A program made the position numbers and the translations under genes. Below are positions 7,721-53,026 of a DNA stretch of 64,000 nt, piece by piece (position 1 is the first letter of the stretch; every line of letters starts with the position of its first letter). The notes under the pieces were generated by a model. It did no database searches. It was not told the origin of the DNA and was given only the letters and a program-made list of their open reading frames with translations. Origin of the DNA: Acanthamoeba sp. SK_2022b (Eukaryota > Discosea > Longamoebia > Acanthamoebidae). The DNA is taken from positions 1 through 64,000 of the forward strand of contig JANDJZ010000241.1 of assembly GCA_027943245.1 (NCBI GenBank), read 5' to 3'.

Positions 7721-7839
7721 AGGATACGGCACGGTGGATTCCCGGGTGGTCGCCCACCCCAGTACTAACACCGCCTGGCGCAGCTTAACTTCGCTGTTCG
7801 GATGGGAAGCGGTGCTTTCTGCGCAGTATGGCCGTATCC
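7721..7839 (-). rRNA. 5S ribosomal RNA, copy 1
   Basis: This is a complete 119-nt 5S rRNA on the minus strand. The 5' end GGATACGGCC pairs with the 3' end GTGCCGTATCC (helix I), and the internal pol III promoter region is intact. It is base-for-base the same as copy 3 wherever I compared them. A T-run follows the 3' end (TTTTCCTCCTTTT on the minus strand) and can serve as pol III terminator. It stands alone rather than in a tandem array or an rDNA unit. Confidence 0.96.
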
Positions 7840-8883: not shown

Positions 8884-10193
<1,310 letters not shown>

Positions 10194-10288
10194 GCCTTGC
10201 TTGTAGCAGGGCCATCTTCCAGCAATCAATTACACGGCAGCAGTTCCCCACTCTCGTCTCCATCTGTCATCGCCACCCTTGCCCAAGG

Positions 10289-10799
10289 TCACTTCCTGAC
10301 GAAGAGGTAGGTTCCCTGGGAGGTGTTCATGAGGTCGTCCAGGACCAGCCCGGTCAGCTGCTGCACTAGATCCACGCCCAGATTGGTCACATGTTGAAAG
10401 AGTCCAGTAGTAGTGGCCAGGCAGTGGAGCGCGTACTCCAATGTGGGCAAGCCCCGAGTCGGTGAGCTGGTCGCTGCCCACGCCCAGCGAGCGCCCTTGG
10501 CCAGCTCCAAAAGACCTGAAAAATAAATGAATGAAATAAGATTTAAAAAAATAAAATTAACAAAACTAAAAGAAACACAAAATCAAACGGAGACGCAGCT
10601 GCGTCAGCTCCATCAGCGCGGGAACGCCCTCGTCGGTGAGTTCGGTCTGAGAGAGGTTGAGCAGCGTCAACGACGACAGCTTGCCCACGTCAGCCGCAAA
10701 CTGCGTGCTTTTAGCATGAATGTGCTTGGATGTATAGCTTGCATTGGCAAGAAGGTGCTGTCTGCCTGTCTTGTGGTTCATGTCACCCTTCACTGACAA
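10289..10799 (-). pseudogene. Leucine-rich repeat protein fragment, probably broken
   Basis: Minus-strand sequence encodes LRR-like units: DVGKLSSLTLLNLSQTELTD, then EGVPALMELTQL, then across an intron LLELAKG, GSDQLTDSGLAH and LEYALHCLATTTGLFQHV, ending YLFVRK and stop. The pattern (sLtlLnLsqTeLtdeGvpaL) is that of cysteine-free RI/AMN1-like LRRs. The frame changes between LTDSGLAH and LEYALHCL, so a 1-nt indel or unseen splice is needed. No start codon or upstream repeats are found. It is most likely a 3' remnant of an LRR gene next to the 5S-rich block. Confidence 0.5.
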
Positions 10800-11138: not shown

Positions 11139-11654
11139 AGGATACGGCACGGTGGATTCCCGGGTGGTCGCCCACCCCAGTACTAACACCGCCTGGCGCA
11201 GCTTAACTTCGCTGTTCGGATGGGAAGCGGTGCTTTCTGCGCAGTATGGTAGGGCGTCGCAACCAGATCTGCAGTGTTTTTACTTACCCCGTAAGGAAAT
11301 TTCGTTTTTCTAGCTATTTTATCATTGGTCGATTCAGACTATTTCAGGAATGTGGCCCTCTTTCTTTGAAATCTGATTGGTGCTTTCAGACTATTTCAGG
11401 AATGTTGCTTAACTCGCTACCTTATTGGATAATTTAGCGGAAAACACGTGGAGATGATGGTTTATCAAAAGAATTGCCCCGAGAGCACCTTTTTAAGGTA
11501 ATCAACAAGTGATTTCTCTGGGTTTTTGTTCAGAAATCGTTGATAATGATTATTTAGTTTACGGAATAGGTGAAGACGGAGGAATGAAAAGAATGACCAA
11601 TGAGAAAACAAACAGATCAAACCGGTTGAGACAGCCTACAGTATGGCCGTATCC
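11139..11654 (-). pseudogene. 5S rRNA copy 2, split by a 389-bp insertion
   Basis: Positions 11654-11647 hold the first 8 nt of 5S rRNA and 11249-11139 hold nt 9-119. Between them sit a 389-bp insert and a second copy of nt 9-16. Removing the insert and one copy of the 8-bp duplication restores a normal 119-nt length. The downstream part, including the internal promoter region and the 3' T-run, is unbroken. Transcription could therefore still occur, but the product would have a foreign 5' end and could not form helix I normally. Confidence 0.9.
11250..11638. mobile_element. MITE-like non-autonomous DNA transposon (hAT-type features)
   Basis: This 389-bp insert is bounded by an 8-bp direct repeat CAGTATGG (11242-11249 and 11639-11646), a target-site duplication. 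Its ends are imperfect inverted repeats: left TAGGGCGTCGCAACCAG, right (reverse complement) TAGGCTGTCTCAACCGG, matching at 13 of 17 positions, with ATCTG shared a little further in. An 8-bp duplication and TAGGG-type ends are typical of hAT elements. There is no transposase ORF. The interior is AT-rich and has a 21-bp direct repeat (11333-11353 and 11385-11405). Assignment to hAT is inference from the ends alone. Confidence 0.85.
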
Positions 11655-12749: not shown

Positions 12750-12868
12750 GGATACGGCCATACTGCGCAGAAAGCACCGCTTCCCATCCGAACAGCGAAG
12801 TTAAGCTGCGCCAGGCGGTGTTAGTACTGGGGTGGGCGACCACCCGGGAATCCACCGTGCCGTATCCT
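12750..12868 (+). rRNA. 5S ribosomal RNA, copy 3
   Basis: A complete 119-nt 5S rRNA on the plus strand, opposite to copies 1 and 2. It begins GGATACGGCC, ends GTGCCGTATCCT, and is followed at once by TTTTCCTCCTTTT, a pol III-type terminator. About 35 bp of 3' flank (TTGCTCTCTGCTACC and onward) match the other two copies. The 5' flank is different. Confidence 0.96.
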
Positions 12869-19933: not shown

Positions 19934-21370
19934 TCACACAGCGGGCTCGATGGTCTGAGGCCCCTTGAACAGCTGGTTGGGGTCGTAGGCCGCCTTGATG
20001 ATGCGCAGCCGCGGGTAGTTCTCGGCGTAGTAGGCCCACTGCCAGTTAGCCATGTTGAGGTCAGGGTAGTTGTTGTAGGTCTCGCCCGACATGAAGGGCG
20101 CCATGCGGCGGTTGTTGGTGATGCTGATCCAGCGGGAGTACTCGTCGGTCATCGAGTCGGGCACGTAGGAGGCGAGCCACACGGCGTTCCACGGGTAGGT
20201 GCGGTGAACAAAGGCCACGGCGTTGCGGGGGCGATCGAGCATCTTGCCGCCCTGCCAGTAGAGGTTGAGCCTCGCGGTGTTGGTCGTGGCGTCGGACTCG
20301 GGGCCGTCCTCGATCGAGCGGCGGATGGCACGGACGGCCTTGGGCGTCAGCTCCTTGAGGAGGCCGCCCTTGGTGAAGCTGCGGCGGCCCTTGGGATCGG
20401 TTCCCTTGCGCACGGTGGCGTCGTAGGGCTCGACGATGGGCGAGCTGGAGAGCGGCGTGACGCCCGTGGCGGTCGCGTTGGCCCAGCGGCCGCACACGCG
20501 GTCGCCCACATCAGGCGGTCCGTTGTAGAAGCACGAGAGGGCGACGCTGAGCTTGGCGGCCGACTTCCAGCCGGTGAAGTAGAGGTTGACTTGGTCGGGC
20601 ATGGTCTTGGAGTAGTCGGCGACGCGCTTGAGGATGGCCTCAAAGTCGTCCCACGCGTAGGTCACGTACGTCGAGTAGAAGGTGGGCTCGATGGGCGACA
20701 GACTCAGGGTGATGGCCGTAACCACGCCCAAGCCGCCGTGTCCTGCCCCACGGAGGGCCCAGAAAAGGTCCTGGTGTGAGTCATCCGAGGCCTCGACCAC
20801 GCTGCCGTTGGCCAGCACAACCTGGAAGGCGAGCACGTTGTCGAGCGAGTAACCGAGCATGGTCGCCAGGTCGTTGGCTCCACCGCCCAGGGATGAGCCA
20901 CCCACGCCCACGCCGGGGCAGCTGCCGCCCGGCGCTCCGAGACCGAGCGGCACCGTGGCCGTGTAGAAGTCGCCCCACCTCATACCGGGCTCCACCACGG
21001 CCTTCTTGTTGTCGACATCGATATTGATGGCCTTCATGTTGGAGAAGTCGATTACCACGGCTTCGTCGAGCACGCCCAGCAGCTCGGCCGAGTGGGCACC
21101 GGAGCGCACAGAGACGGTGAGGTTGTTGGTGCGCGCGTACTCCAAGGCCAGCTGAACTCCGGTCACGTTGCGAGGCGAGACAATGACCGCCGGGAGGCGA
21201 GAGTAGCGCTGGTTGTATCCCGTGCGTAGGTCGTTGTAGCCTGCATCTTTGGCCGCGCGGACGTCGCCGCCCAGCTGGGCGCGCAGCTGGGTCAGGGTGA
21301 GCCCGTGGGCCTCGAACGCGAGCAACGCCACCAACACCAACGCAGCGGTAAAGGTCACACCGCGCTTCAT
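19934..21370 (-). CDS. Secreted FAD-linked oxidoreductase, berberine bridge enzyme type
   Basis: A single uninterrupted frame of 478 codons starts at 21370. It has a signal peptide (MKRGVTFTAALVLVALLAF, then EAHG). The FAD PCMH domain shows PAVIVSPRNVTGVQLALEYA, VSVRSGAHS and VVEPGMRWGDFY, then PGGSCPGVGVGG. The His of SGAH and the Cys of GSCPGVG are both present, as in bicovalently flavinylated family members. The C-terminal BBE motif is YAENYPRLRIIKAAYDPNQL, ending FKGPQTIEPAV. Known: these enzymes oxidise alcohols, sugars or alkaloids with O2 and release H2O2. The substrate cannot be read from the sequence. Oddity: it has no introns although nearly all neighbours have many, which may point to bacterial origin or retrocopying. 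Confidence 0.92.
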   Translation of the reverse strand: MKRGVTFTAALVLVALLAFEAHGLTLTQLRAQLGGDVRAAKDAGYNDLRTGYNQRYSRLPAVIVSPRNVTGVQLALEYARTNNLTVSVRSGAHSAELLGVLDEAVVIDFSNMKAINIDVDNKKAVVEPGMRWGDFYTATVPLGLGAPGGSCPGVGVGGSSLGGGANDLATMLGYSLDNVLAFQVVLANGSVVEASDDSHQDLFWALRGAGHGGLGVVTAITLSLSPIEPTFYSTYVTYAWDDFEAILKRVADYSKTMPDQVNLYFTGWKSAAKLSVALSCFYNGPPDVGDRVCGRWANATATGVTPLSSSPIVEPYDATVRKGTDPKGRRSFTKGGLLKELTPKAVRAIRRSIEDGPESDATTNTARLNLYWQGGKMLDRPRNAVAFVHRTYPWNAVWLASYVPDSMTDEYSRWISITNNRRMAPFMSGETYNNYPDLNMANWQWAYYAENYPRLRIIKAAYDPNQLFKGPQTIEPAV

Positions 21371-21541
21371 CGAGGAGACCTTTAATGGTGTGTAATCGGA
21401 GTTGGGTGTGTAAAACGCGGGCGGAGGAGGAAGATGGTCTTCTGTCCGTGCGTGCCTTGTTTGCTTTGTTGTGTTGGTTGTGGCGCCAACACGCTTTCAG
21501 CGGGTGGCACCGATACAAGGAGCTCCGGGGCTATAATTGGA

Positions 21542-26694: not shown

Positions 26695-29600
26695 ATGGAC
26701 GTTCTTCAACAAAACGATTTAGAGTACCTTTTTTCGAAAGTGGCCCCGGCGGCAGACGCAACCTCGATCCACGCCGCCACATCGTCCAGCCTCACCGGCA
26801 CTCTCCCTGCCCTTACTGTCTCTACCGCTTCCGGCAACCCTTCCACCGGCAGCAACACTCTCTCCCTCTTCGCTCCGCCGACGTCTTCATCGTCCGACAG
26901 CGGCGCGTCACTCTCGCAGTTCCTCTGCCAAACGCTCGAGGTCCCTGCCGTAGACGATACAGCTGCCCAGCAAACAGCTGCATCGGCCATCACTCACACC
27001 ACAGCCGCACTCACCGCTGACCCGGCCGTCGCTGCTGCCACTACTGTCAACGGTCTTCATATTTCGAACATCAACAATATCAACCGGGCCATCCAAGAGA
27101 CCGTCTCGGGGTTCGAAAACAGCGCTCAGCTACACAAGCTCTTCAAGACCGAAGGATCTGAGAGCGGCGAGCTTCAGGCCCTGCCCTCGCTCTTTGATCT
27201 CCCTACCGACCCGACTCTTTCGCTTTCCCCGGGCAAGGTCTCCTCTTCCTCGCCTTCGTCGACCGAGCACTCCACGCCCGCCTCGTCGCCTCTTAGCCAA
27301 CAGATGATGCATGAAGCCGAGTCCAGCGAGACGCCATCGCCTCTCCTGCCGCCTTACCCCATGGCACCGCTCTCTCTGTCGTCGGGTTCTTCATCTAGCG
27401 GACGCAAGCGTTCGATGGACGACGCCGGCCTCTCTTCGGGCTCCAGCTCGTTCCCGGCCGTGCCCGTGATGAACCCAGGCGGTTTCCCCCTCTCCGGGGT
27501 AGCCAGTAACACCGATGGTGGTGTTGGCGGCCACCGTCTCTCAATCGACAACCACAGCCACCGCTCGTCGATTGACAACTCGGCGGCTCCCGATGGCGCT
27601 ACCTCCGCGCTGTCGTCGTCTGTCTCCTCACCGCGGTCCTCGTTCCAGGACGATGTCGAGCCGTCACAAGGTACAACCGGACTGGTCATACTGTAGGCCC
27701 GTCGCTGTTGCGTTGACAGCTGACCGGTGTGGTGCCTCGCACAGAGCAACTCGAGGAACTCTACAACATGATGGAGTGGAGCTCCGATCTGCGCTTCCGG
27801 CCCGCGAAGAGGTTAGTACTTGGCCACTTCTTCTCTTTTTCCTTTCGTCTCGTGTGATGTGTCGTGGTGCACGACAACCTCTCTCCGTCACATCGATCTT
27901 ATTCGCCCAATCCTTGTTCGGTTTGACGTATTCGGCGGTGATTGGTGGAAATTATTTGATTGAACTAATTTCCCTCCCTCGTTGACGTTTGTTGACGTGT
28001 TGTTCTGCAGGAAACGCGAAAGCAAGACCAAGGAGGCACGCAAGAAGAAACACATCCTCTCCGAACAACGGCGACGAAATCACATGAACGAGGCCATCGA
28101 CACGCTCAAGGCCTATCTCCCTGGCCAGAACGTGCGTGTCCCTCCTTTTGGCCTTGTGTTGCCCTCGACCGTTCTGTTGACCTCAGCCACGTCGTAGGTC
28201 GAGTCGCCCGAAGCCGAGCCGCCTACGTCGGGCCAGTCCAAGAAGACCAAGGTGGCCGTGCTGAAGGAGTCGACCGTGTTCCTGTCCCGCATGCGCGATC
28301 TCACGCTGCGCCTGATCGACGAGAACAAGCGCCTCACATCGGAGAACAAGGGCCTCAAGGAGCAGCTCAAGCGGCTTCCGTTGCCACACGACCTCGCCCA
28401 ACAGCAGCAGCAACAGCAGCAGGCCTTTGCGCTCTCTGGACTGCCCGCACACATGGGACAGCCCCTGTATTCTACCGGGCCGATGATACCGACCCTTCCC
28501 GCAGCGCCCTACTACGCACAGGCTCAGGTCGTTCAGCAGCAGCTCGACGTAAGCTATCCCCTCCCTCTCCCCCCCCTCCCTTGAGAGCCCGTCGAGGCGC
28601 CTGTTGCTCATGTTCGCCACTCTTGCTTTGACGACTCTGCAGCAGAGGTTGAACGAGCTCAGGATGCAGCAGCTTCAGCAGCCACAGCAAGCGCCCGTTC
28701 AACATACGTACGATCTGTTCATTTCCGCTTGCTGGCTCTTCTGGTCGATCTCACACGCCCGTCTACTACTCCTGCAAATATAGGATGGCCTCGCTCGGTC
28801 AAGCCTTCCCTCAGCAGCCGCAGCAGCAACAGCAGCAGCAGCAACAGAAGACGGACTCGTTCCCGCTTGTCCTGGGCTCGTCGAACGCGTTCCCCGACTT
28901 CCAGGCCATCCCCTTTTACCCTGCCCAGGACGCCTTCGCCCACGTCGACCCGAACCAAACCCTCCAGGTAGGTCAGCCTTCCTTTGGCGACGTGCGGGCT
29001 ACAGCAAGGCTCACTTGCCCCTCTGCCTTTTTCCCATTCAGAATCCTGCCTCTGGCCTTGTCAACCGACGCTTTGCGGCTAACCCCAACAACGTCGCTGC
29101 TGGCACGACACAAACCCAACAGCAGCAGCAGCCGGCGAGTGGAGCAGGCGATAGCGAGCGAAGTGGCTTCCTCTCGCAGCAAGGCTCGAGGTTGCTCTTT
29201 GTACGCCCCGCCGCGCAACAATGACGCCTCGAGCAGTTAGCTGCTTCGCAACCCGTTGATGATGCTGATGATGCTGGATTACGACGATGACGGTGGACAT
29301 GCAGGGCGTCTTCTTCATGATGTTCGTTGCCTTTGGCGCGCCGTGGGATAGCATCTCCTACGCCGACTCGAGCATGCCCCTCGCTGCGCCCGGTCGCGTT
29401 CTCATGTCCGACGCCGACCTCGACGCCGATCTCGGGGCGGGAGTAGGCGGGTACGATTGCTCTCATGCGTGCCTGCGAGACGTCCTGAAGAAGACTGCGT
29501 TGCTAATCGTTCGGCCTCGTTTCGTCTGACTGCGTGCAGATTTGTCCCCCTGGCCATGTTCTGGCTGAAGTGGGTCCTGTTGCTGACGGCGTGCTATATC

Positions 29601-31421
29601 ATCATGACCCTGTGGCGAACGAGCCGCATCTGCCACCAGTTCCAGAAAGCCAGCCACGACCTCCAGGTGACCGACGTCTACCTCAAGCGCGGCAACATTC
29701 GCCAAGCCGAGAGTTCCTCGCGCGACTGCCTCGAACACCTGGGCAGCCCGCTGCCGTCGAGTCTCGCGGCACGCTTCGCCATGACAGCGTGGGAGATGGT
29801 GCGCCACGTGCTCCACATCGTCTTCATCGGTCGCTTCATCGAGACCGTTATGATGTACGCTCGCAACGACGTGGCCATGTCCTCCATGCAAGCCCGCGCG
29901 CTTTCCGTCTTCCTCAAGTACGTCTCGGACCCGTGCCCACAGCCCGCTGTGTTTTTTCCTGTCTTCTCGAGGCGGCGGCGCAGAGGTTGACCGTGCGTTG
30001 ACGTGAACACGCAGGACTCACGAGAAGCTGGACACCGAGTGGCTCTACGCTGCCCTGACCGCCTTCAACACGGCCCAGGCCACGCAGAACCTCAGCCTGC
30101 AGGCCGAGGTCAATCTCGGCATCATGCTCCGCCTCCACGGCAACCCCTACCTCACCAAGCTGTTCGCGCCCTACATCCGCTACCGCTCTTGGCTCGTCGT
30201 GCGCAAGTCCGCTGCCTCGGGTCAGGAACTCGGTATGTCTTGTCTCCTCCGAGGCTCGGCGCACTCGCGACCGTCAAACTCACCTCAACCGATCTGTTGC
30301 GTCGCCCCGGGGACAGGTTGGGTGTACTATGGCGAGGCGATCACGTGCATGTGCGCCGGCCAGCTGAAGCAGGCCTCGCGCTATCTCAAGAAGGTGGCCA
30401 GGCTCAGCAAAAACAACACGGCGCTCAAGAGGCACGCGGCGACCTACCTGGCCCTCATCTGCACGCTCTCCGGGAAGACCGCCAAGGGCCGCCAGCTCTA
30501 CAAGTGGGTCTACCAGGCCTCGCTGCTCGGCAACGACCTCGTCACTCTGTGCCTGGCTTTGCTGGGCCTGGTCCGATCTCTCATGGCGACCAACGAGCTC
30601 AACGAAGCGCAGGAGGTGCTCAACGTGTTGGAGCAGTTCCCCTGGAAGTCCCTTAACCGCTCCGACCGGATCCTCTTCCGCGCTCTGCAGGTATGACCGA
30701 CATGCCCCTCTTCCCCCCCCCTTCCTGTGGCCGAAACTCACGCCCCCCCCTTCCCTCTGCCCATACACTTCAGGCCTACGTCCACTTGAGGTCGGGCCGG
30801 ATCGAGCCAGCCTTCGCCATCGCGTCCGGGTTGCACAAGGAGATCGAGGAGGAGAATACCGTGCGCTACCACGCCAAGTTCTACTCCTTCCTCTCCTACC
30901 AGGCACTGGCCGAAGTTTCCCTGGGGCTCTACGAGGAGTTGGCCAAGAACAACGTGCGTGCTCTCGTTTGTTTGCTTGTTCGTTCGTGCGGGAGCTTGGT
31001 AGTTTGTGCGAGACGAGCGTCGAGCTCACATGAAGGTGGTGGACAATGCAGGATCAGCTCACGGGCAAGGTGACCAGAGAGGATATGGAGAGCATGGCAT
31101 CGGCGTCGCTGATGCACGTGAACATGTTTGCCGAGGCTTACCCCGTCAACAAGCCTTGCGCGCTTCGATGCCACGCCGTCTACAGCCACATCACGCTCGG
31201 CCCTTCCGGTACGAGCGCGCCTTCCTCTCGACGAGCGTCGTCCACGAGTGAGTGTGTGCCCCCTTTGCTGACTCGGCAAAACCACAGCGGTAGGGAAGGC
31301 CAAGTACTATTGTGAGCGAGCGCTCACAACAGCACGAGAGATGAAGCTGCGCGTAGAGGAGGACAGGTGCCAGCAGGCATATCAGAAATACCTTCTCTTG
31401 GACGCCGTCTCCACCGTGTAG
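26695..31421 (+). CDS. SREBP-like membrane-bound bHLH transcription factor
   Basis: Exon 1 (26695-27670) is a Ser/Thr-rich activation region. Exon 3 (28011-28131) holds the basic region and helix 1 (HILSEQRRRNHMNEAIDTLK). Exon 4 from 28198 holds helix 2 and a leucine-zipper-like coil (VAVLKESTVFLSRMRDLTLR, LIDENKRL), then polyQ stretches. The exon ending at 29200 (GSRLLF) joins in phase to 29305 (GVFFMMFVAFGAPW), making TM1. A loop of about 30 residues has GRVLMSD. The next exon (29540) gives FVPLAMFWLKWVLLLTACYI, TM2. The C-terminal domain follows: DVYLKRGNIRQAESSSRDCL, then EHLGSPLPSSLAARFAMTAW and EMVRHVLHIVFIGRFIE. These match, in order, the RGDFAQAAQQL, LGRPLP and LIRHLLQRLWVGRW regions of human SREBP. 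Known: SREBPs are ER precursors cut by site-1 and site-2 proteases when sterol or lipid is low, so the bHLH part enters the nucleus. The tyrosine typical of SREBP basic regions is arginine here. Confidence 0.87.
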
Positions 31422-50793: not shown

Positions 50794-53026
50794 ATGACCA
50801 AGGAAGAGTACTTGGCCTCGCGCACCGAGGAGAACCTGGCCAAGCGCAAGGCCCTCGGTGTCGAGTGGAAGGAGAAGTTCGCACGCCTCACCCAAATGGT
50901 GCGTGCCCCCACCCCTCTTATCACAACCCCTTCTCGCACACCACTGCAGTGCCACCAACGCGCCCTCCACCACACAAACACCAAACGGACAGAAAAAGGA
51001 CAGCGAGTTCACGGACGAGGGCCTTCGGCTGACTGAGCGGCTGCTGGACTTCAACTCGGACTGCTACACGATCTGGAACTTCCGCAGGCTCATCCTCCTC
51101 AACAAGATCAGGGAGGCCAACGAGGAGCAGGCCCGGTTGGCCATCGAGGCCACCGAGCAGCACCGCCAGCAGCTACAGCAGTCATCGGTTGCTCATGCTG
51201 TGGAGGACAAAGCTACGGGCGAACAGGCGGTCGCGGAGAAGCAGGAGAACGAGGAGCAAGGAGATGAGAAGAAGGAAGAGAAGGAGCAGGAGGAGCAAGC
51301 CGCCAGTGCACAGGAGGAAAAGAGCGACGTCACGGCCGAGGCAAAGAACGAAAGCGAAACGAAAAGCGAAGGCCAAGCGGAGGTGGAGCAGCAGGAAGGG
51401 GAGGCCACACCAGAGGAGAAGAAGGAGTTGACAGAAGAGGAGAAGAAGCAGCTCCTCGACGACAAGCTGAATGAGATAGAGGTGGCCAAGGTCAAGCGCC
51501 TGTGTGCCCAATTCGAGCGCGAGCTCGACGCCATCACCAGCCCCGCCATCAAGAGGAATCCCAAGCACGTGCAATCCACACCACAGCGACGCTTCGGCTG
51601 TTTTAACATTTTATTATTATTATTATTATTATTATTATATTTATTGTGTATATTTTGTTTTGTTTTATTTTGTTTTTGGACTAACGCTGCTGCCACGTAC
51701 GTGAACAGGTCCTACTGGCCGTGGAATCACCGGGTGTGGTGCATCCAGCAGCTCGAATCCATCGTTCCCGCGTCCACGCCACCCGCTGCCGAGAGCGAGG
51801 GCGAGGCCAAGGCCAAGGCCAAGCCCGCTGCGCAGACCAAGGTGCGCGGTCACGCATCGCTGACGAGGCCAGTTCGAGAGAGAGAGAGATTTCATTCTCA
51901 TGCGCTCTGATCACGCGCAGGACTTGCAATACTTCTTGAAGAAGGAGCTCGGTCTGTGTGAGCTCTTCCTGCGCCTCGATGGCCGAAATTGTACGCGCGT
52001 TGTGACAAGGCGCCACCGCTGTTGATGGATAGGATCGTATCTGATCACCCTTCCCAATCGATTCGTGCGCGCGTGCAGTCCATTGCTGGAACTACCGAAG
52101 CTTCATCACCGGCAAGGCCGGCATCACGCTGCAGCAGGAGCTCGCCTTCACCGAGCAAAAGATCGGCGAAGGCGGCCAGTTCTTCTTCGCCAGCGCCGGT
52201 ACCGCACGCGCACACGCACAGAGACTTGATGACTGTGCGATGACCGTCTTGGTGGATTTATTGCAGGAGGAAAGAACAGCTTCTCGAACTACAGTGCTTG
52301 GCATCTGCGCAGCAAGGTGCTGGGCCAGCTGTGGGACGACATGCTCGCCAACCACAAGGACGAGGAGTATTGGCAGTCGGTCGACGAAGGTAACGTGGCC
52401 GCGCGTTTTTGGTTACTGCATCGCCTCGTCACTGACACACTCTGTATTTTTTATATTTTATTTTATTTTATTTTATTTATTTTTAGAGTTTCGATTGCTC
52501 GAGCAGTCGCTGGTGATGCATGACGGCGAGAGCCCATGGCAGTACCATCGCTGGCTCATGACCAAGGGTGAGTTTGCTCTCATGGATGAGTCTGTTCTGC
52601 CCAAGTCATGCGTTGGGTGTGCGTGTGTGATGTGTTGGTGACTGCAACTCACATAAGCGCTTTCGGTCGGTGTAGTGCCCAGCGAACGCAAGGAGGAGAT
52701 GATCCAGCGCGAGCTCGAACTCATCGACGAGATCATCAGGACTGACGAGGAGCTCTCGCCCAACAAGCCACCCAAATGTACGCCACCACGCATCGTGTCG
52801 CGTGTTTCGAATCGCTGATCGCGGTCTGACGTGTGGTGCTTGGGTTCGCGCGACGTCAGGGGCGATGCTGTCCAAGGTGTATCTGCTGCAGGAGCAGGCC
52901 GAGCTGAAGGGCAAGGACGAGGAGCACCAGGAGAAGACGCGCGACCTCATCGCCAAGCTGACCGCCCACGATCCCTTCCGGAAGAACTACTACGCCCATC
53001 TCCTCGACAAGTACCAAAAGGCCTAG
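50794..53026 (+). CDS. RABGGTA: Rab geranylgeranyltransferase (type II) subunit alpha
   Basis: The start at 50794 gives MTKEEYLASRTEENLAKRKA. Protein-prenyltransferase alpha (PFTA) repeats follow: CYTIWNFRRLILLNK, SYWPWNHRVWCIQQL, FHCWNYRSFITGKAG, NYSAWHLRSKVLGQL and SPWQYHRWLMTK, each with the conserved W-x-x-R core. The C-terminus (AMLSKVYLLQEQAEL, then RDLIAKLTAHDPFRKNYYA) is typical for the alpha subunit. Known: with the beta subunit and Rab escort protein it attaches geranylgeranyl to Rab C-termini in the cytosol. The LRR and Ig-like parts of mammalian alpha are absent, as in yeast. Oddity: a charged E/K/Q-rich insertion of about 130 residues lies between the first two repeats. AATAAA is at 53089, only 22 bp before the next gene's start codon. 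Confidence 0.93.
51612..51650. repeat. (ATT)n microsatellite, intronic
   Basis: A TTA/ATT trinucleotide array of about ten units lies in an intron of the RabGGTase alpha gene. Confidence 0.9.

What the first reader, a model, noticed from the sequence alone, without database searches (positions are those of the whole stretch)
26695..31421. Full-length SREBP-like factor in an amoebozoan
Seen: bHLH and zipper-like coil, then two hydrophobic segments about 30 residues apart, then a long C-terminal domain. Splicing 29200|29305 and 29450|29540 keeps frame exactly across the hairpin. The stretch after TM2 (LKRGNIRQAES, LGSPLPS, MVRHVLHIVFIGRF) lines up with human SREBP (RGDFAQAAQ, LGRPLP, LIRHLLQRLWVGRW). 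Known: membrane-tethered SREBPs are best described in animals and fungi. Inference: this amoeba regulates lipid or sterol genes by regulated intramembrane proteolysis.
Basis: partly seen in the sequence, partly recalled or inferred. Interest (0 to 1): 0.8.

Follow-up and report, generated by a model that had tools for sequence, protein, structure and literature searches.

The report
SREBP-like membrane-anchored gene switch in amoeba
An Acanthamoeba gene encodes a transcription factor anchored in a membrane by a hairpin and followed by the same kind of regulatory domain as the animal cholesterol switch SREBP, but with a DNA-binding part of a different type, and that regulatory domain turns out to resemble one found in bacterial signalling proteins.

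Summary
Window 26695-31421 (+) is one 14-exon gene, all introns GT-AG, encoding 1169 aa. Two 1172-aa database relatives on contigs too short for the introns agree at the junctions. The genome is Acanthamoeba-like (profilin 94%). The protein is bHLH, transmembrane hairpin, then a ~415-aa C-terminal domain homologous to SREBP's: a profile of 90 database SREBP1 sequences scores the three amoeba proteins 22.7-28.8 bits, best of 2000 shuffles 6.9. The domain also matches, nearly end to end, TPR domains of bacterial cyclase/kinase-ATPase proteins (45.8-47.4 bits); profiles of amoeba plus bacteria score the 120 listed SREBP1 records 27.5-44.7 bits, against 18.7 for the best PDB chain. Site-1 and site-2 protease genes are present. 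Against membership: the SREBP tyrosine is Arg and the bHLH does not match SREBP's significantly; SCAP and INSIG were not found, in searches without positive control. Most likely: a membrane-tethered bHLH factor released by S1P/S2P; a lipid role is inference. New variant of a known kind.

The parts
26695..31421 (+). whole gene, 14 exons: 26695-27670, 27745-27811, 28011-28131, 28198-28548, 28643-28707, 28784-28967, 29042-29200, 29305-29450, 29540-29917, 30015-30232, 30317-30690, 30774-30953, 31052-31208, 31288-31421
   Evidence: spliced translation of 1169 aa without an internal stop, all introns GT-AG; junctions matched by P0001 and P0002, 12 of 13 without a gap in each
28039..28287 (+). bHLH domain (residues 358-418; spans the intron 28132-28197), followed by a zipper-like coil to about residue 450
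   Evidence: Pfam HLH 34.9 bits, cut-off 20.7; basic region reads E-Q-R-R-R, not the SREBP E-K-R-Y-R
29195..29355 (+). first transmembrane segment (residues 640-658; spans the intron 29201-29304)
   Evidence: mean hydropathy 1.61 over 19 residues; residues 629-658 identical in 29 of 30 positions among three amoeba proteins
29395..29406 (+). lumenal-loop motif RVLM, candidate site-1 protease site (residues 672-675)
   Evidence: LAAPGRVLMSDADL identical in 14 of 14 positions in three proteins, the whole loop in 22 of 35; human SREBP1 has PGRNVL in its loop
29550..29606 (+). second transmembrane segment (residues 694-712)
   Evidence: mean hydropathy 1.96; residues 694-716 identical in 16 of 23 positions
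29676..31361 (+). C-terminal TPR-type domain (residues 736-1150; spans five introns), homologous to the SREBP C-terminal domain

Best explanation
The gene encodes a membrane-tethered bHLH transcription factor built like SREBP: a cytosolic N-terminal bHLH part, a two-span hairpin with a short lumenal loop, and a cytosolic TPR-type regulatory domain that shares ancestry with the SREBP C-terminal domain. The most likely mode of action is regulated intramembrane proteolysis: the C-terminal domain holds the precursor in the ER or carries it with a partner to the Golgi, site-1 protease cuts the loop at the conserved RVLM, site-2 protease cuts in the first transmembrane segment, and the bHLH part enters the nucleus. 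Shown: the gene, its splicing, the order of parts, the C-terminal homology and the presence of genes for both proteases. Inferred: topology, cleavage, the partner protein, the signal and the target genes (lipid or sterol genes are the first guess, by analogy only).
For: Gene model borne out by two relatives on contigs too short for the introns. Homology with SREBP1 from just after TM2: SREBP1 profile 22.7-28.8 bits for the three amoeba proteins, best of 2000 block shuffles 6.9; amoeba-plus-bacteria profiles 28.0-44.7 bits and 27.5-44.2 bits on 120 of the 120 SREBP1 records listed, best of 2000 shuffles 5.4; best of 177,635 PDB sequences 18.7 bits with the profile. The domain starts about 25 residues after TM2 in both amoeba and human. 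Stretch into and through TM1 29 of 30 identical among three amoeba proteins, loop 22 of 35, TM2 16 of 23; the 14-residue stretch around RVLM is 14 of 14. Site-1 protease gene at C398: 13 of the 16 matches, all colinear over residues 2-663 of the query, 34-81% identity, with the Asp, His and Ser motifs. Site-2 protease gene at C868: three colinear matches, HEIGH and LDGQ motifs.
Against: The SREBP tyrosine is absent and the bHLH scores only 8.0 bits (E 4.3) against an SREBP1 bHLH profile. No SCAP or INSIG found. S1P and S2P also serve other substrates (ATF6, plant bZIPs; general knowledge), so their presence is permissive only. A third hydrophobic stretch (956-974, 1.87) scores higher than TM1; if it spans a membrane the topology differs. 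The bHLH (96 of 106) and the C-terminal domain (423 of 453) are nearly as conserved as TM1, so its conservation is only suggestive. The match in SREBP covers about the first 110-160 positions of the domain, and the 120 SREBP1 records are close relatives, in effect one data point; an amoeba-only profile gives them 11.4-23.5 bits. Two AlphaFold models were poor (pLDDT 42.6 and 42.0). No processing data.
Confidence: 0.7

Rival explanations
1. Independent fusion: an ordinary bHLH gene acquired a membrane hairpin and a bacterial-type TPR domain on its own, and the likeness to SREBP only reflects that SREBP made a similar fusion.
For: The bHLH does not match SREBP's significantly; the C-terminal domain scores higher with bacterial TPR domains (45.8-47.4 bits) than with SREBP1 (22.7-28.8 bits).
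Against: The order bHLH, hairpin, same TPR domain starting about 25 residues after TM2 is shared; adding three amoeba sequences to the bacterial profile raises the median score of the 120 SREBP1 records from 20.7 to 36.5 bits, so amoeba and SREBP share features the bacterial proteins lack.
Confidence: 0.2
2. A membrane-tethered factor released by proteolysis but not for lipids: for example an ER-stress, hypoxia or encystment sensor using the same S1P/S2P pair. (This is a rival on the signal and targets only; it overlaps with the best explanation on mechanism.)
For: S1P and S2P genes are present but SCAP and INSIG were not found; the SREBP tyrosine is missing. A motif count is nearly uninformative: no CACGTG in the 1 kb before this gene, before the first S1P match or in a 1-kb stretch near S2P, and one SRE-like TCACNCCAC, before the first S1P match; the starts of the S1P and S2P genes were not fixed.
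Against: None direct; the SCAP and INSIG searches had no positive control.
Confidence: 0.35
3. Two neighbouring genes: a soluble bHLH protein ending near 29224 and a separate membrane TPR protein.
For: The frame after exon 7 is open to 29224 if intron 29201-29304 is retained.
Against: P0001 and P0002 read straight through (GSRLLF|GVFFMM) on contigs too short to hold the introns; a retained intron would bring an in-frame stop and cut TM1 short.
Confidence: 0.03

Closest known systems
Animal SREBP1/SREBP2
   Same: bHLH, two-span hairpin with a short lumenal loop, homologous C-terminal domain at the same distance from TM2, a PGR motif in the loop (compared with SREBP1 only), S1P and S2P genes in the genome
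   Different: Arg in place of the SREBP tyrosine and no significant bHLH match; longer loop between the bHLH helices (by eye); C-terminal domain shorter and closer to bacterial TPR domains; SCAP and INSIG not found
Fungal SREBPs (K. phaffii Hms1-1 and Hms1-2, S. pombe Sre1)
   Same: membrane-tethered bHLH factor, both ends cytosolic by prediction (PMC12926077, passages seen)
   Different: the K. phaffii proteins keep the SREBP-specific tyrosine (same passages); no fungal SREBP C-terminal family was among the Pfam hits of the amoeba protein
Bacterial adenylate/guanylate cyclase or Ser/Thr kinase - AAA_16 ATPase - TPR proteins (P0003; Ensifer/Sinorhizobium/Microvirga L068-L072)
   Same: TPR domain homologous over residues 736-1150
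   Different: no bHLH among the Pfam domains of P0003, L068 and L069, which carry a kinase or cyclase domain plus an ATPase instead; a membrane hairpin was not looked for there
Dictyostelium MrfA
   Same: membrane-tethered transcription factor in an amoebozoan (PMC3828593, passages seen)
   Different: Ndt80-type DNA-binding domain and self-cleavage, not bHLH and not S1P/S2P (same passages)

Membership tests
SREBP | bHLH domain followed by a zipper | tested here: met
   Pfam HLH 34.9 bits over a 20.7 cut-off; the zipper rests on inspection and on a helix to residue 434 of P0001 in a low-confidence model
SREBP | SREBP-specific tyrosine in the basic region | tested here: not met
   EQRRR against EKRYR in human SREBP1; EKRYR in 105 of the 120 SREBP1 records listed and EKRRR in 0; 14 of the 120 have no HLH domain listed. 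That the tyrosine marks the family: PMC12926077, passages
SREBP | bHLH recognisably of SREBP type | tested here: not met
SREBP | two transmembrane segments flanking a short lumenal loop | tested here: met
   residues 640-658 and 694-712; a third stretch, 956-974, also scores high (1.87); topology itself not measured
SREBP | homologous C-terminal regulatory domain | tested here: met
   match limited to about the first 110-160 positions
SREBP | S1P recognition site in the loop | tested here: inconclusive
   conserved PGRVLM; fits the R-x-hydrophobic-x consensus as recalled; no cleavage data
SREBP | S1P and S2P in the genome | tested here: met
   (queries recalled from memory)
SREBP | SCAP partner | tested here: inconclusive
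   no sterol-sensing domain, SCAP_N or SCAP membrane-part match; 44 matches to Beta-prop_SCAP, 0 over its cut-off; no positive control in a eukaryote, introns split domains
SREBP | INSIG | tested here: inconclusive
   no match, no positive control
SREBP | sterol- or lipid-dependent release and action on lipid genes | not testable with these tools
   needs cells
Bacterial cyclase/kinase-ATPase-TPR proteins | TPR domain with a G...L..LG.P.P start | tested here: met
   46.1 bits over residues 736-1150
Bacterial cyclase/kinase-ATPase-TPR proteins | AAA_16 ATPase and cyclase or kinase domain | tested here: not met
   not found in the amoeba protein, present in L068, L069 and P0003

The most novel reading that the evidence does not exclude
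The SREBP architecture predates the split of amoebae from animals and fungi, and its C-terminal (in animals SCAP-binding) domain descends from the TPR domain of bacterial-type cyclase/kinase-ATPase signalling proteins; the Acanthamoeba protein is the missing link that keeps the ancestral domain and an older, non-SREBP bHLH, and is released by S1P and S2P.
Probability: 0.45. Interest if true: 0.82.

Novelty: new variant of a known kind. Interest (0 to 1): 0.64.

Why it matters
It extends the SREBP design to Amoebozoa with an S1P/S2P pair in the same genome, gives a testable root for one of the best-known membrane-to-nucleus switches, and proposes an origin for the SREBP C-terminal domain, to which Pfam assigns no family in human SREBP1. 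In Acanthamoeba, a host of intracellular bacteria and an opportunistic pathogen (general knowledge), it would name a candidate for the control of lipid supply.

Tried and rejected
Pfam and NCBIfam: only HLH above cut-off, weak TPR hints (Pfam on the window protein; NCBIfam on P0001, nothing above cut-off). PDB sequence search with the C-terminal half of the window protein: one weak TPR hit; with recalled human SREBP1: four weak fructosamine-3-kinase hits. Region search for further relatives: P0001 and P0002 only, of 447 candidates. Genome-contig scans for bacterial relatives: 51 and 132 stretches matched patterns, none confirmed; tblastn against plasmids worked for the P0003 domain, while the amoeba domain itself found nothing there. 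The PF02163 hits were bacterial genes, not the amoeba S2P. WD40 loci as SCAP candidates: for 8 of the 44 matches the sequence within about 1.5 kb was listed for hydrophobic segments; L010 and L015 show several, largely in simple-repeat frames, and this was not resolved; the other 36 were not examined. AlphaFold with 17 sequences did not improve on the single sequence. Foldseek on the poor single-sequence model puts TPR proteins at the top (LGN, an axonemal chain, O-GlcNAc transferase, kinesin light chain) with target TM-scores of at most 0.49 in the 50 rows shown; it counts as a hint only. Motif count in three 1-kb stretches: no CACGTG, one TCACNCCAC.

Papers: the ten searches showed, among the rows listed, no title on an amoebozoan SREBP or on kinship of SREBP with bacterial TPR domains; listings and starts of abstracts were seen, and passages (found by term) of PMC13294678, PMC5179073, PMC5064789, PMC5800844, PMC3828593, PMC9549277, PMC6213907 and PMC12926077. 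Not all matching papers were listed (30 of 130; 15 of 19; 15 of 70). No paper was read whole. Subscription papers and preprints are not covered.
Full report
What is there. Window 26695-31421 on the + strand is a single gene of 14 exons; every intron is GT-AG, the phases agree, and the product is 1169 aa ending at the stop at 31421 (introns 66-199 bases, GC3 0.79). A protein search with the C-terminal half returned three proteins with E <= 1 among the 7995 candidates scored: P0001 and P0002, both 1172 aa and 93% identical over that half, and P0003 (E 4.6e-4), a bacterial kinase-ATPase protein. Over the full length P0001 and P0002 are identical at 1005 of 1144 and 998 of 1151 aligned positions. 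Their contigs (longest 4266 and 4409 bases) are shorter than the 4727-base span of this gene, so they can hardly hold its introns and look like transcripts; in each, 12 of 13 junctions align without a gap and the thirteenth is a short indel in a variable stretch, a different junction in each. None of the three hits bears an ncbi, uniref, nr or eukprot source, so a full-length protein may be missing from those sets; shorter or split models would not have been seen because of the length filter.

The organism. The window's genome (44.9 Mb, 1129 contigs) holds profilins 94% and 86% identical to the profilin I sequence of PDB entry 1acf; that 1acf is from Acanthamoeba castellanii is recalled. The assembly also holds bacterial sequence: the two Peptidase_M50 places found by Pfam are, by their translated neighbours, bacterial rseP-like genes beside bamA-, cdsA- and dxr-like genes (names by eye).

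An unexpected link. P0003 aligns with the amoeba domain over about 420 residues at 22% identity. Relatives of that bacterial domain were found in 16 plasmid records: 14 Ensifer, 1 Sinorhizobium, 1 Microvirga. Five were fetched; of these L068 and L069 were scanned with Pfam and carry a cyclase domain and an AAA_16 ATPase, a layout like soluble adenylyl cyclase (recalled). A profile of these five plus P0003 matches the window protein over residues 736-1150 at 46.1 bits (P0001 47.4, P0002 45.8) and five SREBP1 records at 15.2-23.7 bits, best of 2000 shuffles 6.2. Adding the three amoeba sequences raises the scores of the 120 SREBP1 records from 13.7-28.0 (median 20.7) to 28.0-44.7 (median 36.5), best of 2000 shuffles 5.4. 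As a control for general TPR likeness, a profile of two amoeba and six bacterial sequences (A5) against 177,635 distinct PDB sequences gives at best 18.7 bits (a designed protein), with TPR proteins next at 16.7 and below, while the same profile gives the 120 SREBP1 records 27.5-44.2 bits. An amoeba-only profile gives them 11.4-23.5 bits, median 20.4. The match in SREBP covers roughly the first 110-160 positions; the rest of the mammalian domain has diverged too far or is different. The 120 records are in effect one data point in evolutionary terms. Profile-profile comparison agrees (probability 94% for amoeba-plus-bacteria against SREBP1).

Structure. AlphaFold on P0001 alone and on a 17-row alignment stayed at pLDDT 42.6 and 42.0. 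The C-terminal part is helical in both. This is a hint, no more.

The machinery. Site-1 protease: of 16 matches to a recalled human S1P, 13 lie at C398:51052-54250, colinear with residues 2-663 of the query, best E 8.6e-36, 34-81% identity; the exons carry FDTG, GHGTFVAG and LSGTSVASP. Site-2 protease: C868:5429-7047 holds three colinear matches to a recalled human S2P (53, 45 and 34% identity; E 4.2e-8, 2.1e-5 and 0.02), with VIHEIGHALAA and APIQWLDGQ in open frames there. SCAP and INSIG: nothing in PF12349, PF24006, PF07281 or with a recalled piece of human SCAP; 44 weak matches to Beta-prop_SCAP, none over the cut-off. None of these empty answers has a eukaryotic positive control, and introns cut domains, so they do not show absence. 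With P0001 as query the own genome gave 14 matches: 13 in this gene and one weak bHLH match elsewhere, so no second copy was seen. Pfam HLH gave five matches in the genome, this gene included.

How it most likely works. The bHLH part faces the cytosol, the loop the lumen, the TPR domain the cytosol; a signal lets the precursor reach S1P, which cuts at or near RVLM, and S2P then frees the bHLH part through TM1. The parts, the homology and the protease genes are shown; topology, cutting, the partner, the signal and the targets are inferred. The missing tyrosine suggests E-box rather than SRE binding (general knowledge of bHLH proteins).

Standing. It is designed like SREBP but fails a defining test of the family (the tyrosine), so it is filed as an SREBP-like protein, a new variant of a known kind, not as an SREBP. 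The ten paper searches listed no report of it; that covers only the open library searched and the rows listed.

Noticed in passing
window 7721-7839 (-), 11143-11257 (-), 12750-12868 (+): Three 5S rRNA genes within 5.2 kb, two at 113.8 bits and one at 87.6 bits, in mixed orientation. ARAGORN found no tRNA genes.
   Followed up: no
window 19934-21493 (-): A long uninterrupted frame encodes a berberine-bridge-enzyme-like FAD oxidase (FAD_binding_4 plus BBE), without an intron inside the matched part, unlike the 13-intron gene studied here.
   Followed up: no
G000 contigs C309 and C333 (L006-L008): Bacterial-looking gene clusters (rseP-like beside bamA-, cdsA- or dxr-like genes, named by eye) in the assembly: contaminants or bacteria living in the amoeba.
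   Followed up: partly
L068-L072 (Sinorhizobium, Ensifer, Microvirga plasmids) and P0003: TPR domain of bacterial cyclase/kinase-ATPase proteins with a G...L..LG.P.P start that resembles the start of the SREBP C-terminal domain; in L068 and L069 Pfam covers little or none of it.
   Followed up: yes
window 9023-10366 (+), 50798-51907 (+): Other genes in the window: part of a family-18 glycosyl hydrolase (chitinase-like) and part of a protein prenyltransferase alpha subunit.
   Followed up: no
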